A stretch of 64,000 bases of DNA from Pyrobaculum islandicum DSM 4184 (GTDB lineage Archaea > Thermoproteota > Thermoprotei > Thermoproteales > Thermoproteaceae). The stretch covers positions 310,001 to 374,000 of the forward strand of contig NC_008701.1 of the NCBI RefSeq assembly GCF_000015205.1, read 5' to 3'. Shown here in pieces: positions 7,360 to 62,955 of this stretch (within the stretch, counting starts at the first letter, position 1; each line of letters opens with the position of its first letter). Both the position numbers and the translations under genes were made by a program. The notes under the pieces were generated by a model. The model searched no databases, was not told the DNA's origin, and worked only from the letters and a program-made list of their open reading frames with translations.

Positions 7360-8480
7360 AGCCGCTTAGTTTAATTGGGCTGTATATCTACCTCCTTTCG
7401 GTTCTAGCCGTCGCTTTAACGGGTTTAGACGTCGTATCGTATGTATTAGGTACTATCATAGACGTGGCAATATTCACAATTATAGCACTTTCAGTAAATC
7501 TAGAGGCGGGAATTGGTGGGATACCAAATTTTGGAAAAGTTCTAACAGTAACAGCAGGCGCTTTTATAGTCGGCGGAGTTATATCTAGGATAGCTATGGC
7601 TATGTATGGCGTAAGTGGCGACTTTGTCTACGACAATCCAACTATCGTATCTACTTTGTCGAGAGTAATGGACTTCCAAGGCGCTTTTCTATTGCTTCTA
7701 ACCTCACTCGTAATATCGCTTATTGTAGGCGCTGTTATTGGCGTCGCTATGTCAGCGCCGGCGGTTAGACTTCGCGAAGATTATCTCGCAATTACTCTAC
7801 TTGCCTTTGGCGATTTTCTATTCTACATCGGGAGGTATTATGAACCTCTCGTGGGAGGTACTTTTGGCGTATCAATTCCGCCTATATTTGAAAAAATCTT
7901 TGGCGGCGGCGTTGCTAGATATATAGGTGCTGCAGCTTTAAGCGGCGCTATCGCACTCCTCATATATCTAGCGCTAGAGAGAATTATACAATCTCCCTAC
8001 GGCAGAGCTCTCAAAGTACATAGAGAAGATCCTGAACTTGTAGAGGTATTCGGCCGCAAAGCCACGGCGCTGAGACTATGGGCTATGGCTATAGGCGGTG
8101 CTGTGTCTGCTGTAGCAGGGGCTTTATATGCACTTTATGCGGGGGCTGTGCACCCGAGTTCTTTTACTAGAATAACCTTCACCTTCTACCCATGGCTTAT
8201 AATGATTCTAGGCGGCATGGGTAATAACCTCGGTGTCGTAAATGGGGTTTTCATTTTTGTAACTATGCGCCGCCTGGTAGACATGTATAAATATGAGCTA
8301 TCTGCAGTGTTGGGCTTCGACCCCGTGTGGTTGGCGTATATGGTTTTCGGCGCACTTGCGCTAGCGATAATAGCCATAAAGCCAGAGGGCTTGGTGCCAG
8401 AAGAATCCACGCCACTTGCAGTTAAGAGGAAAGTAACAAAATTAGATAGACAAGGAGGTGGTGCGGCCGCCGGGATTTGA
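7356..8480 (+). CDS. livM: Branched-chain amino acid ABC transporter permease LivM
   Basis: 374-aa membrane permease, partner of LivH, with about nine hydrophobic segments, NLEAGIGGIPNFGKV near residue 48 and the EAA loop SPYGRALKVHREDPELVEVFG near 215. The last codons (QGGGAAAGI) are encoded by the 3' end of the tRNA-Phe gene on the other strand. The overlap is 22 bp, so livM probably acquired its present stop by reading into the tRNA. With livH, livK, livG and livF the transporter is complete. Confidence 0.9.
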   Translation: MKPLSLIGLYIYLLSVLAVALTGLDVVSYVLGTIIDVAIFTIIALSVNLEAGIGGIPNFGKVLTVTAGAFIVGGVISRIAMAMYGVSGDFVYDNPTIVSTLSRVMDFQGAFLLLLTSLVISLIVGAVIGVAMSAPAVRLREDYLAITLLAFGDFLFYIGRYYEPLVGGTFGVSIPPIFEKIFGGGVARYIGAAALSGAIALLIYLALERIIQSPYGRALKVHREDPELVEVFGRKATALRLWAMAIGGAVSAVAGALYALYAGAVHPSSFTRITFTFYPWLIMILGGMGNNLGVVNGVFIFVTMRRLVDMYKYELSAVLGFDPVWLAYMVFGALALAIIAIKPEGLVPEESTPLAVKRKVTKLDRQGGGAAAGI

Positions 8481-8551
8481 ACCCGGGCCCGCCCGTTGAA
8501 GGCTCGGCGAGCTGTCTTCAGCCGGGCGCTCTCCCGCTGAGCTACGGCCGC
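8459..8551 (-). tRNA. tRNA-Phe (GAA) with an 18-nt intron at the non-canonical position 39/40; CCA encoded
   Basis: The minus strand folds as a tRNA: acceptor GCGGCCG/CGGCCGC, D stem GCTC/GAGC, T arm CCGGG-TTCAAAT-CCCGG, discriminator A, then a genomic CCA (8459-8461). The anticodon loop CTGAAGA carries GAA. The anticodon stem pairs (CCCGG/CCGGG) only if 8496-8513 is removed. That segment folds with its flanks: central helix GAAG/CTTC, bulges ACA and AAC, inner helix GCTC/GAGC. Cutting after base 2 of each 3-nt bulge gives exactly the mature stem, with the intron after base 39. The outer helix is interrupted, a relaxed HBh' motif as handled by crenarchaeal splicing endonucleases. Confidence 0.93.
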
Positions 8552-57397: not shown

Positions 57398-58255
57398 ATG
57401 GATATCTTAGCTTTTCAAAACGCGGTCGACCTCGTAACAGAGTTAGAGAAAGTGGGAGTGGTAAAACAGGTAGAAGAGCGGGTTTTTCCAGATGGCGAGG
57501 TCTTAATTCGTCTCCCAGAGACAGGTCCAGAAGTCGCACTTGTCCTTCGGCTCTATCCCAGCGTCAATGACAACATAATTAAATTGGTTTTAGCGCTTGA
57601 CGCGCTTAGCGATATAGGCGTGCGTAAAGTGGTTTTGCTAACGCCATATTTCCCATATGCCAGACAAGATAGGAGGTTTAGAACAGGAGAGCCGATCAGT
57701 TCTAAGACTATTCTCAAGCTGTTGGCTAATTACCCCGTCTTCGCTATTATTACGCTGGATCTACACAAGCCTTACATTGCCGAGTACGTACCGCGTATTA
57801 CTACAAGAAATATATACCCAGCCGTAGAGTTTGCTGAAAGACTTAAAGACGTAGACATAGTACTAAGCCCAGATTTTGGCTCTGTCTACCGTGCTGAGGC
57901 TATAGCAAAAATATTGGGGGTGTCATATACATACTTCGAGAAGTATAGAGATAGAGACACTGGAAGCATCACACTTGTCCCACGCTATGATGTTAATCTC
58001 AAGGGTAAAAACGTCGCCATTGTCGACGATATATTATCGACAGGGGGCACTTTAGTAGACGCTTGTAAATCTGCGCGGGCGCTTGGCGCAAATAAAGTAT
58101 ATGCCGCAGTAACCCATTGCCAACTTCTTAGAGATGCTAGAGAAAAAGTGAGGGGGTGTGTTGACCGCTTAATATGTACCGACAGTATACCTAATGAATT
58201 TGCAGAAGTGAGGACTGGCCCTATTTTGAGAAGAGAGTTGGAGCGTCTCCTATAA
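57398..58255 (+). CDS. prs: Ribose-phosphate pyrophosphokinase (PRPP synthetase)
   Basis: 285 aa with [11 protein letters not shown] near residue 30, [18 protein letters not shown] near 87 (flexible ATP loop), the cation loop LDLHKPYI near 120, and the PRPP-binding loop [19 protein letters not shown] near 205. It transfers pyrophosphate from ATP to ribose 5-phosphate, feeding purine, pyrimidine, histidine and tryptophan synthesis. Archaeal class length. Its 3' end overlaps the convergent HDAC-family gene by 6 bp. Confidence 0.95.
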
Positions 58256-59260
58256 TCTCCAATATCGGCCGACGTAGCTCTTGACCTCCTTTATAATTTC
58301 TTCAAACTTCTCTAAGGTGTGTACGTCTGTAGAAGTTTGGCTTTCGCCTGGGGCAAACTCCCCAGCGTCTGCTAGTCTAATGAGAGCTTTTGTACCTCTT
58401 CTTATCACCTCACGGTTGTAGCCGCCTTCAAGTAGAAATATTACAGGCTTCTGTAGACGTAATACTGTTTCAAAGACGTAGAGATAGCTTTTAAGCGATA
58501 GTTTCATATCGGCTAGGGGATCTTCCTTATGCGCATCCCAACCTAGTGAGATTATCACAAGACGAGGGTTGTATTGTCTCAACACAGATGTTATAATCTC
58601 GTCAATTACTTTGATGTACACATCGTCGCCAGTATGAGGCGGCAGTGGGATATTTATATTGTAGCCCTCCCCCTTGCCCTCTCCCACCTCTTCGGGATAT
58701 CCCGTGCCTGGGTAGAGCGTGAGCGGATGTTGATGTGTAGAGATATACAACAGATCTCTGTCATATAGTATTTCCTGTGTGCCATTACCGTGATGTACGT
58801 CTATGTCTAATACGGCTACTCCCTCTTCTCCATAAAGTGCGCCTATAGCAGCTGTATTAAAGATACAAAACCCTTGACTTGGCGCAGAGAGAGCTCTACC
58901 GGCAACCCCGGCGTGGTGACCCGGCGGTCTTGCCGCAATTAACGCCGTCTCTTTTCTCTCCACTGCGTTTATAATCGCGGACACGGCTAACGCTGCGGCA
59001 TCGCATGTACCGCTTGATATGTATGTATCGCCGTCGATTTCGGCATGTCCTTCTCTACAAAGTCTACGTACTAGCTCTACATAGCTCTTGTCGTGTATAG
59101 ACTCTATAATGTGCCAGACGTCTTCGCGCATAACGGGCTCCTTTATCTCGGCCCCGGCCTCCCGAGCCCCCTCTAACAAGTGGTCTAGTCTATCTGGCGC
59201 CTCTGGATGTCTAAACGGCGGCGTGTGTTTTTTAAATATTGGCGAATAATACACAAGCAT
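58250..59260 (-). CDS. Histone-deacetylase-family (AcuC-like) amidohydrolase
   Basis: 336 aa with the class I/II deacetylase markers: ARPPGHHAG near residue 108 (charge-relay His pair), [13 protein letters not shown] near 148 (zinc Asp/His), [27 protein letters not shown] near 236 (zinc Asp; Gly-Trp-Asp as in polyamine/acetoin types) and LLEGGYN near 275. It removes acetyl groups from polyamines or proteins by zinc catalysis. The substrate is uncertain. With Sir2 at 45 kb, the window carries both deacetylase mechanisms. Confidence 0.92.
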
Positions 59261-59319
59261 AAGTCTATCAGATAAGACATTATTTAAGCCTTCAGTTAGA
59301 TTTAAAAGTTGTATAAAAT

Positions 59320-59505
59320 GTGTCTATTTTGAAAAGAAAGAAGAAAGAAGAGGAGGAAGACGATTTAGAGAAAATTCTTTCTGAACTGAAGGAAAATGAT
59401 GAAGGCAACGACGTCACTACTGTCACTATTCAAATAGCTGGACTTAAGGAGTTGACTAAGGCCATACAAGAGTTAGCTGAAGCTATGAAGAAATGCAATA
59501 GCTAA
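59320..59505 (+). CDS. Small highly charged protein
   Basis: 61 aa, GTG start. A Lys/Glu-rich N-terminus (KRKKKEEEEDDLEKILSELK), then a beta-like TTVTIQIAG and a helix ELTKAIQELAEAMKK. It may be coiled-coil forming. Two AT-rich boxes lie within 25 bp upstream. The overlapping ATG 2 bp earlier hits a stop at once. No family recognised; its 3' end overlaps convergent arfB by 4 bp. Confidence 0.65.
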   Translation: MSILKRKKKEEEEDDLEKILSELKENDEGNDVTTVTIQIAGLKELTKAIQELAEAMKKCNS

Positions 59506-60122
59506 ACTTTGAGAAACTCCTCTACTTTTTTTAAAATCCTCCCTAGGGCGTCTTCCAACATCCTTCTCCCCCTTTCGGCTGAGACTTCTCCAGATTTGAG
59601 ACAGCCAACGATGCCGCTTTTCGAAAATTTATCTACAGACATCTTTCCGAATAGGGAGATGTCCCCCTCGCATATGTCGACTAAATCGCCTGTTAGTTTT
59701 CCGCCTATTGCAAGATATATACTAGTTTCGTCACTACCTGCGTGATCTCTTACAAAGATGTACGACCAAACTTTTATGGCTAATACCCGGGGCCCCAGCT
59801 CGTAGTTTAATTGTTGCACCAAGAGACTAACGGCTTCCCACACTCCGCCGTGGCCTACCACAGCTACTACCTTGCCACATTTCTCTACTGCAGATCTAAG
59901 CACATCCTCTAGGTATGGTATGAGACTTCGGCACCTTACAGAAATTGTATTTGGAAACGCACGATGTTCGTCGCTACAGGTATACCAAATCGGAGGTAGT
60001 ACCTGTGCCGTAATTTTTTCAGCTAATTTCAACGCTATATATTGCGCTATCTCTGTATCAACAGTAGGGGGGAGGTGGGGGCCGTGTTGTTCATATGAAC
60101 CTATTGGCAATATACAGACCAC
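59502..60122 (-). CDS. arfB: Creatininase-family deformylase, probable ArfB
   Basis: 206 aa with creatininase features: LPIGSYEQHGPHLPPTVDTE at residue 5 (metal-binding E, H, D), GHGGVWE near 112 and a later AGSDETS (DETS metal site). ArfB removes formate from the GTP cyclohydrolase III product in archaeal riboflavin and F420 synthesis. The call is supported by the neighbours: arfA divergent 88 bp away, then arfC and ribB. Start GTG 60122. Confidence 0.87.
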   Translation of the reverse strand: MVCILPIGSYEQHGPHLPPTVDTEIAQYIALKLAEKITAQVLPPIWYTCSDEHRAFPNTISVRCRSLIPYLEDVLRSAVEKCGKVVAVVGHGGVWEAVSLLVQQLNYELGPRVLAIKVWSYIFVRDHAGSDETSIYLAIGGKLTGDLVDICEGDISLFGKMSVDKFSKSGIVGCLKSGEVSAERGRRMLEDALGRILKKVEEFLKV

Positions 60123-60155
60123 ACACAGAGATTTTGTTCATTTATTCTCTTCGCC

Positions 60156-60171
60156 GTAAACTAAAGTTTAC
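60156..60171. promoter_or_regulatory. Palindromic operator candidate, arfB/arfA
   Basis: GTAAACTAAAGTTTAC is a perfect inverted repeat GTAAAC-N4-GTTTAC, just upstream of a TATA (AGTATTTATAT, about 60180-60190). A further half-site GTTTAC lies at 60199-60204, next to the arfA start. The same architecture precedes ribB. Confidence 0.7.
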
Positions 60172-60210
60172 AATACACAAGTATTTATATGATCGGTAGT
60201 TTACCACCAT

Positions 60211-60876
60211 GTGCACGGCATCGCAGTGATTGAGCTCAAAGGATATAGAGAGTGGACAGAAAGCTTGGGCCCCCGTAGGGAACATATAATCCAACAGATT
60301 CAAGCCAAGCTACACGCGACGCTTTGGAAAAGTTTTACCACAGTGGGGGCCCTGCCCCATCATTTTAGATACGACTTTTTTATAGCGCTTGTTAACAACA
60401 TAAGTAGTGCAGCTGTAGAGTCGGCTGTTGCAAAAATAGCGAGACACTCCCCAGTACCTATAGACTTCTGTATAGGAACAGGCGACACTCCCTACAGCGC
60501 GTATCTAAACTGCAGAGGTAAAGAGGTAGAAGCTACAAGTTTCTCTATCGTAGCCCATATGGATATTGTAAATAGTACCAAGACTACAAAACTCAACGGT
60601 CCGTTAGACGTATATTCACACATAGTAAGGTTGATAGACACACTTTTAGATGTGTGTAAAGAATATGGATGTCTAGTTTTTTACCTAGGTGGAGATAACA
60701 CAGCTCTCTTCTTGCCAACGCCTGATGTAATCAACGAAATTGTAAGAAATATAGATACAAGAGTTAGAGTGGGCGTCGGCGTGGCGAAAAAACCATACAA
60801 CGCGTTTGTCAAAGCAACTAGAGGTCTTGACTACCTCCGGTCAACAAATAGAGAGGGGATAAAAATAGTGAAATGA
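60211..60876 (+). CDS. arfA: GTP cyclohydrolase III (ArfA)
   Basis: 221 aa, the archaeal GCH III family: IAVIELKGYREWTESLGPRRE at residue 3, TFSIVAHMDIVNST-type central segment near 110, CLVFYLGGDNTALFLP near 150 (cyclase-like fold with metal-binding Asp) and VGVGVAKKPYNAFVKAT near 190. It opens GTP to the formylated pyrimidine that starts riboflavin and F420 synthesis. GTG start about 27 bp after the TATA; the nearby ATG at 60209 hits a stop. Overlaps arfC (ATGA). Confidence 0.92.
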   Translation: MHGIAVIELKGYREWTESLGPRREHIIQQIQAKLHATLWKSFTTVGALPHHFRYDFFIALVNNISSAAVESAVAKIARHSPVPIDFCIGTGDTPYSAYLNCRGKEVEATSFSIVAHMDIVNSTKTTKLNGPLDVYSHIVRLIDTLLDVCKEYGCLVFYLGGDNTALFLPTPDVINEIVRNIDTRVRVGVGVAKKPYNAFVKATRGLDYLRSTNREGIKIVK

Positions 60877-61526
60877 GACCATACGTCTATCTAGTTGCCG
60901 CAACTACGATAGACGGTAGGATAGCTAGTTATACAGGATATTCACGTTTGTCATGTCCATACGATTTAAAAAGACTTCATTCGATAAGGGCTAGTGTAGA
61001 CGCAATAATAGTGGGGGCAAATACCGCCATTGTAGACAACCCTAGGCTAACAGTGAGGTATGTCGAGGGAAAAAACCCGATGCGTGTATTGATAGACGGG
61101 GCGCTTCGCGCCCCCCTCACGCTCCGTATATTCGACTCCTCGGCGCCGACTGTTGTATTTACTACACATAAAGCGCCGCAAGACAAGATACATGAGCTGC
61201 AAAAACGTGGTGTGAAGATCTATATAACGGAAGGCGAAACAGTCGACCCCGCTTATGTGTTAGATACGTTATATAAACAGGGAGTGAGGAAAGTGTTACT
61301 AGAGGGGGGCGGCAGGACGAATTGGGAATTTCTCTCCAAGTGTCTTGTCGATGAAATAATTCTAACTGTAACGCCATATGTATTTGGAAGAGGGGTCTCC
61401 CTAGTAGAGGGGGCCGGATTTGCCACTACTGAAGATACGCCGTTTGCTCTTACGCTACATTCTATAAAGCTTTGTGAATGCGGCCAAGAGGTAGTGTTGA
61501 AATACCACGTATCTTGTAAACATTAG
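60873..61526 (+). CDS. arfC: Diaminohydroxyphosphoribosylaminopyrimidine-type reductase (ArfC / RibD C-terminal)
   Basis: 217 aa, RibD reductase domain alone: YLVAATTIDGRIA at residue 6, DAIIVGANTAIVDNPRLTVR near 46, VLLEGGGRTNWEF near 146, FGRGVSLVEG near 172. It reduces 2,5-diamino-6-ribosylamino-pyrimidinone 5'-phosphate with NADPH in the archaeal pathway. It carries no deaminase domain, as normal in archaea. Its last 11 bp lie under the next operator palindrome. Confidence 0.93.
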   Translation: MRPYVYLVAATTIDGRIASYTGYSRLSCPYDLKRLHSIRASVDAIIVGANTAIVDNPRLTVRYVEGKNPMRVLIDGALRAPLTLRIFDSSAPTVVFTTHKAPQDKIHELQKRGVKIYITEGETVDPAYVLDTLYKQGVRKVLLEGGGRTNWEFLSKCLVDEIILTVTPYVFGRGVSLVEGAGFATTEDTPFALTLHSIKLCECGQEVVLKYHVSCKH

Positions 61527-61531
61527 TTTAC
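61516..61531. promoter_or_regulatory. Palindromic operator candidate, ribB
   Basis: GTAAACATTAGTTTAC is the same GTAAAC-N4-GTTTAC, overlapping the end of arfC. A half-site GTTTAC at 61558-61563 is next to the ribB start, with TATA-like AAGTATATT between. The spacings are within one base of those before arfA (26 versus 27 bp between palindrome and half-site). Confidence 0.7.
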
Positions 61532-61565
61532 AGAAAAGTATATTAGCAGTGACAAAAGTTTACTT

Positions 61566-62207
61566 ATGCCAATTGAGGAGGCCATTAAGGCTTTAAGAGA
61601 GGGACGCATAGTTATGATATACGACGGAGATGAGAGAGAAAACGAAGTAGATTTTGTCATACGTGGCGACGCTATAACTCCGTCGTTAGTGCGATGGTTG
61701 CGTAAAAACGCCGGGGGACTGCTGTGTTTTGTTACTACTGAAAAAGTGGGGAGAACCCTAGGCTTAGAATTCCTAAGCGAATATTACGGAAGAAGAGGCT
61801 ATGTTACTAAGGCGCCATATGGCGATAATCCAGCGTTTATGGGATATGTAAATCACATCAAGACTAAAACTGGCGTAAGAGATGCAGATAAGGCGTTGAC
61901 TATAAGAGAGCTAGCCAGAATTGTAGAGCTAGCTCTTAGAGACCCCGATGCGGCTTATGAAGAGTTTAGAAAGAACTTCTACCTTCCCGGCCATGTGCCG
62001 ATTCTCGGCGGCAGAGTTGGAACAAGATGGGGGCATACAGAGCTTGCGCTTATATTAGCCAACGCGGCCGGGATACCTCCGGCTTTGGCTATAATAGAGG
62101 CGTTAGGCGATTATCAAGAAGCTATGCCACTAGAAGAGGCTAAAGAGTTGGCATCTATACTGGGGATACCTCTTGTCACAAGTAGGGAAATTAGACCTTT
62201 AGCTTAA
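61566..62207 (+). CDS. ribB: 3,4-dihydroxy-2-butanone 4-phosphate synthase
   Basis: 213 aa with the RibB signatures: VMIYDGDERENEVDFVIRGDA at residue 18 (acidic metal site), a LLCFVT segment, a substrate loop with TKTGVRDADKALTIREL near 105, and PGHVPILGG near 140 followed by a late catalytic region (GHTELALILANAAG). It makes the four-carbon unit of riboflavin from ribulose 5-phosphate. No RibA domain. Preceded by the same operator as arfA. Confidence 0.93.
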   Translation: MPIEEAIKALREGRIVMIYDGDERENEVDFVIRGDAITPSLVRWLRKNAGGLLCFVTTEKVGRTLGLEFLSEYYGRRGYVTKAPYGDNPAFMGYVNHIKTKTGVRDADKALTIRELARIVELALRDPDAAYEEFRKNFYLPGHVPILGGRVGTRWGHTELALILANAAGIPPALAIIEALGDYQEAMPLEEAKELASILGIPLVTSREIRPLA

Positions 62208-62223
62208 GTTCCACGACCCGTCT

Positions 62224-62249
62224 GTCCCTAGGCCGTTATGCCTAGGGAC
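62224..62249. repeat. Perfect 10-bp hairpin after ribB
   Basis: GTCCCTAGGC and GCCTAGGGAC (62224-62233, 62240-62249) around CGTTAT. It lies 17 bp after the ribB stop and just before the transposon remnant, and could be a transcript-end hairpin or part of the element. Confidence 0.55.
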
Positions 62250-62377
62250 TTTCTCCTTGCCCACGCCTTCACGGGCATCTATGATGCCTCCGGCGTGGGG
62301 TCATCGGGCATGGGGCTGGACGGCGCGCGGCCCTCCGCGAGCGTCTTCGGAGCAGAGCCCCTCATTTAGGGAGGGGC
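62238..62377 (+). pseudogene. IS605-type element 3' remnant (second copy of the 24.9-kb segment)
   Basis: A 43-codon frame from ATG 62238 (MPRDFLLAHAFTGIYDASGV, ending FGAEPLI) shares FLLA-x-x-F-x-GIYD-x-SGVG with 24.93 kb. It ends at TAG 62367-62369, within a hairpin GCCCCTC-ATTTAGG-GAGGGGC (62357-62377) like an element right end. The DNA also holds nested hairpins (CCCACGCC/GGCGTGGG around GGCATC-TAT-GATGCC), largely kept in the other copy through G-U pairs. The rest of the gene is missing. Confidence 0.5.
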
Positions 62378-62529
62378 GTGTACATGTATTTAAGTCTTCT
62401 GCCTGTATTCACAGCAACCGCTTCCTGCTCATGCGGGGTTTCCACCGCGGAAGTCTCGGCCGTTGTCTCTTTAATGTCACGTAATATACTCTATCTTTAC
62501 TGTCTCAACCTTGGCTTATGTTCTTTGTT
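62378..62529. other. Intergenic, no gene seen
   Basis: T-rich sequence between the transposon remnant and the end of the leftward cysteine-cluster gene. No ORF with coding character. Confidence 0.5.
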
Positions 62530-62955
62530 TTATGGCTTAAAGTGTCTACGAAGTCTAAGCTTTATCTTTGTTAATTTAGTCTCCTTAACAAACTCGATAA
62601 CATATGGAGCTAAACGTTTAACCTCACTTTTTGAAACTGTATACCAAACTGGACATGTCCTATCTATATCTACTTTCTCTCCGTCGAAAATAAGTGGATA
62701 TAAACGACAGCCGATGGGCCTTATGTCGTATATCTTACACATCTTGGTGTCTGGGTCGTAGAATACACAGTGGCCATTCACGTTTTTCAGCCTATATACG
62801 CCGTCGCGCTCCTCTGCAAAATCCTCTAACTTATAGCCCTTTGATGTTATCCGCAGTATATCTTCGACAAGGAGCTCCATTTCAGTACCTATACAACAGA
62901 TGCCACATTTAATACAGCGAAATTTTACCTCAAACCAACTGGCGTCTTCCCACAT
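62530..62955 (-). CDS. YkgJ-family cysteine-cluster protein
   Basis: 141 aa with the Fe/Zn-chelating cysteine pattern of the YkgJ (UPF0153) family: [21 protein letters not shown] near residue 13, [27 protein letters not shown] near 60-85 and RTCPVWY near 100. About eight cysteines. Usually proposed to bind a metal or Fe-S cluster; role unknown. Starts ATG 62955, divergent from the flavoprotein at 63013, with 57 bp between. Confidence 0.88.

What the first reader, a model, noticed from the sequence alone, without database searches (positions are those of the whole stretch)
60156..61563. Same palindrome plus half-site in front of arfA/arfB and ribB: a probable riboflavin operator
GTAAAC-N4-GTTTAC occurs at 60156-60171 and 61516-61531. 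In both cases a TATA follows and a lone GTTTAC half-site touches the start codon (60199, 61558), with a palindrome-to-half-site spacing of 27 and 26 bp. Independent recurrence in two promoters of one pathway, with matching geometry, is hard to get by chance. Archaeal riboflavin genes are known in some lineages to be controlled by the kinase-repressor RbkR; whether this is its site is unknown.
Basis: partly seen in the sequence, partly recalled or inferred. Interest (0 to 1): 0.72.

Follow-up and report, generated by a model that had tools for sequence, protein, structure and literature searches.

The report
Paired riboflavin operators, probably for RbkR
Two promoters of the vitamin B2 genes in a heat-loving archaeon each carry the same pair of regulator-binding DNA sites about three helix turns apart, conserved in its relatives, and probably bound by a known kind of regulator that is also the riboflavin kinase.

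Summary
GTAAAC-N4-GTTTAC occurs exactly twice in the 1.83 Mb genome, both times at riboflavin promoters (arfB/arfA, ribB); the reversed control pattern occurs 0 times. In 19 genomes of the family, 22 of 36 sites with at most one mismatch lie at these two promoters; the other 14 match the control background (13). So it is a pathway-specific operator, not chance.

The 'half-site' is better read as a second, degenerate palindrome. In 24 promoters its left arm peaks at the same 4-nt gap (consensus ATAAAC-N4-GTTKAC). The two operators are 32-33 bp apart, about three helix turns. The related genus g8 (probably Vulcanisaeta) has the same paired layout at 30-32.5 bp with a changed half-site and spacer, before both ribB (10/10) and arfA (8/9).

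The genome encodes one RbkR: winged helix plus CTP-dependent riboflavin kinase. It is the best candidate binder (about 0.8); binding is untested. The anatomy favours repression, but the direction is not settled. ribH, riboflavin synthase and rbkR lack the site.

RbkR operators in archaea are published (paper not readable here), so this is a new member of a known kind with a conserved paired geometry that I could not find described.

The parts
60156..60171 (.). Distal operator, arfB/arfA intergenic: GTAAAC-TAAA-GTTTAC
   Evidence: exact palindrome, one of only two in the genome; conserved at 9-12 of 12 positions in front of arfA in all 17 family genomes examined
60182..60190 (+). TATA-like element of arfA (TATTTATAT)
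   Evidence: sequence; about 25 nt before the start codon, consistent with a leaderless transcript (inference)
60189..60204 (.).
   Evidence: in G033 this site is a palindrome with one mismatch, ATAAACCGGTGTTTAC
59502..60122 (-). arfB candidate (creatininase family), divergent from arfA
   Evidence: PF02633 1.9e-37; ArfB model NF033501 1.5e-12 but below its cut-off; assigned by context
60211..60876 (+). arfA, GTP cyclohydrolase III/IIa
   Evidence: PF05165 2.5e-34
60873..61526 (+). 2,5-diamino-6-ribosylaminopyrimidinone 5'-phosphate reductase (arfC/RDR)
   Evidence: TIGR01508 over its cut-off
61516..61531 (.). Distal operator of ribB: GTAAAC-ATTA-GTTTAC, overlapping the reductase stop codon (61524-61526)
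   Evidence: conserved in 15 of 17 family genomes, a short-spacer variant in G027, absent in G033
61537..61544 (+). TATA-like element of ribB (AGTATATT)
61548..61563 (.). Proximal operator of ribB, degenerate: AGTGAC-AAAA-GTTTAC, centre 32 bp from the distal one
61566..62207 (+). ribB, 3,4-dihydroxy-2-butanone 4-phosphate synthase
   Evidence: PF00926 1.1e-41; NF004437 over its cut-off

Best explanation
Each of the two riboflavin promoters carries a pair of operators on the same face of the helix, about three turns apart: a strong distal palindrome upstream of the TATA box and a weaker proximal palindrome between TATA and start codon. The most likely binder is RbkR, the protein that joins a winged helix to a CTP-dependent riboflavin kinase, encoded elsewhere in the genome (G000:C1:836446-837081). 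Two dimers bound side by side would enclose the core promoter and shut it, so that flavin or CTP status read by the kinase domain sets expression of arfA, the reductase, ribB and, through the shared distal site, the divergent arfB. Shown: the sites, their specificity, conservation and spacing, and the presence of RbkR. Inferred: that RbkR binds them, cooperativity, and repression rather than activation.
For: Genome specificity. Conservation at both promoters over the family while the coding DNA and even the orientation of arfB change. In G033, where the reductase and ribB coding regions leave no promoter gap, the ribB operator is gone too. Left arm of the proximal site: mean 3.38 of 6 matches at gap 4 against 0.7-2.4 at other gaps over 24 promoters; 21 distinct sites, 3.33 against 1.84 +/- 0.24 in shuffles, none of 20,000 reaching it. 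Spacing between operators varies by only 1 bp while TATA shifts by about 5 bp between the two promoters. The same pairing with a variant motif in genus g8. RbkR: PF01982 3.4e-46, winged-helix/riboflavin-kinase model NF010762 4.2e-53 but under its cut-off, PDB 3cta/5trd T. acidophilum 6.9e-37 with the helix-turn-helix part aligned. Recognition helix [ST]RQG[LA][YH]K throughout genera g1 and g2, which carry the motif, and TPQGASK in g3, which has no site with at most one mismatch at these genes.
Against: No binding or expression data. rbkR itself, ribH and riboflavin synthase lack the site, whereas I recall rbkR as a usual member of RbkR regulons. From memory of the RbkR paper's abstract (not readable here), FMN weakens and CTP strengthens DNA binding, which fits an activator better than a feedback repressor. 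In genus g2 the arfA promoter has only a distal site 35-38 bp from the TATA-like element, inside the arfB coding end, where occlusion is hard to see. The left-arm signal is clean for ribB but confounded by AT/AC-rich sequence for arfA alone (gaps 6 and 8 score as high). The link between recognition helix and motif rests on few independent events.
Confidence: 0.72

Rival explanations
1. RbkR binds the same sites but acts mainly as an activator from the distal operator (DNA-bound when FMN is scarce), with the weak proximal site serving as a brake at high RbkR levels.
For: The distal site is the stronger and more constant one and sits just upstream of the TATA region, where archaeal activators often bind (general knowledge); remembered FMN/CTP effects on RbkR binding; distal-only arfA promoters in genus g2 and in G036.
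Against: The distance from distal site to TATA differs by about half a turn between the two promoters, awkward for a fixed contact with TBP/TFB; in g8 arfA the upstream operator overlaps the TATA-like run and the other reaches the start codon (inference).
Confidence: 0.3
2. The operators belong to a different, unidentified regulator; RbkR is only the kinase here.
For: No site near rbkR; no binding data; the NF010762 model is matched below its cut-off.
Against: The winged helix is intact and aligned with T. acidophilum RbkR and kept in all family genomes where the N-terminus could be read; no other helix-turn-helix gene was found beside the cluster among the proteins scanned; RbkR is the established riboflavin regulator in archaea (cited in PMC8305020, PMC10746257).
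Confidence: 0.18
3. Chance recurrence or an RNA element (terminator, riboswitch) rather than an operator.
For: The ribB palindrome overlaps coding sequence, and part of its conservation may be protein-driven.
Against: About 0.1 exact sites expected in the genome at uniform base composition (length / 4^12), 2 found, both at rib promoters; conservation in 17 genomes; no Rfam match; no T-run follows the palindromes; the conserved right arm at ribB is intergenic.
Confidence: 0.02

Closest known systems
RbkR regulons of archaea (Rodionova et al. 2017, doi 10.1093/nar/gkw1331; not readable here, known from citations and memory)
   Same: Winged helix plus CTP-dependent riboflavin kinase protein; palindromic operators before riboflavin biosynthesis genes; single-pathway regulon
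   Different: No site before rbkR, ribH or riboflavin synthase; operators come as a pair 30-33 bp apart. Whether that paper already lists this motif or the pairing for Thermoproteales could not be checked.
Thermoplasma acidophilum RbkR (PDB 3cta, 5trd)
   Same: Similarity over residues 21-211, E 6.9e-37
   Different: Recognition helix differs (SQQSASR against TRQGLYK in the alignment)
Archaeal regulators binding several helically phased sites, such as Ss-LrpB (from memory)
   Same: Regularly spaced operators at a promoter, about three turns apart
   Different: Different protein family and ligand; comparison of layout only

Membership tests
RbkR operator/regulon | Genome encodes a winged-helix + CTP-dependent riboflavin kinase fusion | tested here: met
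RbkR operator/regulon | Shared palindromic operator before riboflavin biosynthesis genes, conserved in relatives and rare elsewhere | tested here: met
RbkR operator/regulon | Operator also before rbkR, ribH, riboflavin synthase or other riboflavin genes (usual but, from memory, lineage-variable; not strictly defining) | tested here: not met
   no site of 10 or more of 12 in ribH/riboflavin synthase loci or near rbkR; the other four near-matches in G000 are not in front of riboflavin genes; transporter genes were not searched by name
RbkR operator/regulon | RbkR protein binds the site, modulated by CTP and FMN | not testable with these tools
   needs gel shift or footprinting
FMN riboswitch (RFN) | Match to the RNA family in the leader | tested here: not met
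   no Rfam match in 58000-62600

The most novel reading that the evidence does not exclude
Thermoproteales RbkR regulates through a cooperative pair of operators fixed at about three helix turns, with operator-operator spacing rather than position relative to TATA under selection; the pair is kept while half-site and spacer drift from N4 to N5 together with the RbkR recognition helix. This would be a paired-operator mode not described for RbkR.
Probability: 0.35. Interest if true: 0.55.

Novelty: new member of a known kind. Interest (0 to 1): 0.42.

Why it matters
It gives a base-level, testable operator map for flavin control in a hyperthermophilic archaeon. The two conserved spacings allow a direct test of whether a metabolic enzyme-regulator works by paired binding around the TATA box, and whether it represses or activates, which determines how flavin feedback works in archaea that have no FMN riboswitch.

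Tried and rejected
Riboswitch or terminator reading: no Rfam match, no T-run after the palindromes. A wider regulon: the four further one-mismatch sites in the genome are not in front of riboflavin genes; ribH, riboflavin synthase and rbkR have none. Extension to other orders of the class: the 19 genomes outside this order returned no ribB match, so no comparison was possible. The RbkR paper is not held; papers that cite it and were opened gave no motif for this order. No structure prediction was run, because sequence alignment already covers the winged helix.

Full report
The window lies at 310001-374000 of a single-contig genome of 1,826,402 bp.

Observation. Both palindromes, both half-sites and the stated spacings are present as described. 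The exact 12-base palindrome occurs only at these two places in the whole genome; the same pattern read backwards occurs nowhere. Within the window GTTTAC alone is not enriched (28 found, 32.5 expected), so the signal is the arrangement, not the hexamer.

Genes. The first palindrome lies between a creatininase-family gene on the minus strand (ArfB candidate by context; its score is below the ArfB cut-off) and arfA (GTP cyclohydrolase III). The reductase follows arfA. The second palindrome overlaps the reductase stop codon and precedes ribB.

Relatives. Exact matches in 45 genomes of the order: 13 places, 10 of them at these two junctions. With one mismatch allowed, 19 genomes of the family hold 36 places, 22 at these junctions; the other 14 are close to the control count of 13 (my tally). 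At arfA all 17 family genomes that hold the cluster keep 9-12 of 12 positions; at ribB 15 of 17 keep 10 or more, G027 has a short-spacer variant and G033 has lost the site together with the promoter gap. arfB is divergent from arfA in the home genus and co-oriented with it in the second genus.

The half-site is a second operator. I took the proximal GTTKAC of 24 promoters and scored the upstream hexamer against GTAAAC at every gap: the best gap is 4, the same as in the distal palindrome. On 21 distinct sites the value exceeded all 20,000 shuffles; related sequences are not independent, so this is indicative. ribB alone shows it cleanly; arfA alone is confounded by AT/AC-rich sequence. In G033 the proximal site is a palindrome with a single mismatch. 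Distance between right arms is 32 or 33 bp in all 24, while TATA-like elements sit 22-24 bp from the distal centre at arfA and mostly 16-20 at ribB in the home genus (the TATA picker failed in two cases). Hence the pair, not its register to TATA, seems to be held constant.

A second genus with another motif. In genus g8 of family f3 (probably Vulcanisaeta), ribB has TAAAC-N5-GTTTA plus a weaker upstream copy 31-32.5 bp away in 10 of 10 genomes, and arfA has the pair at 30-31 bp in 8 of 9. The half-site core and the spacing persist although the spacer length changed.

Regulator. One RbkR gene lies elsewhere in the genome, overlapping the gene before it by 4 bases, without the motif nearby. Its C-terminus is the CTP-dependent riboflavin kinase domain and its N-terminus a winged helix; the best solved relative is T. 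acidophilum RbkR. RbkR control of riboflavin genes is reported for other archaea by papers citing the original work. Recognition-helix residues are shared by the two genera with the motif and differ in g3 and family f3. This is suggestive only.

Mechanism. Sites that flank TATA and reach towards the start codon favour repression by enclosing the core promoter. My recollection that FMN weakens RbkR binding points the other way, and some promoters have only the distal site. I therefore put repression at about 0.6 given RbkR, and name the experiment that decides.

Novelty. RbkR operators are a known kind, and I recall that 94 archaeal genomes including Crenarchaeota were covered; this motif may already be listed. 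The paired three-turn layout is the part I could not find described in what I could read.

Noticed in passing
62208-62400: GC-rich non-coding stretch after ribB that matches 40 places in this genome at E <= 0.001 (itself included), like a dispersed REP/MITE-type repeat.
   Followed up: partly
8459-8551: ARAGORN calls a tRNA with an undefined four-base anticodon (aaga), possibly a tRNA with an intron.
   Followed up: no
58250-59260: Histone-deacetylase-family protein next to the riboflavin cluster (PF00850 1.1e-73).
   Followed up: no
L033, L034, L035, L040 (genomes of genus g5): Genus g5 of family f3 keeps an RbkR with winged helix but no arfA or ribB match was found, as if it took up riboflavin; what RbkR would regulate there is open.
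   Followed up: no
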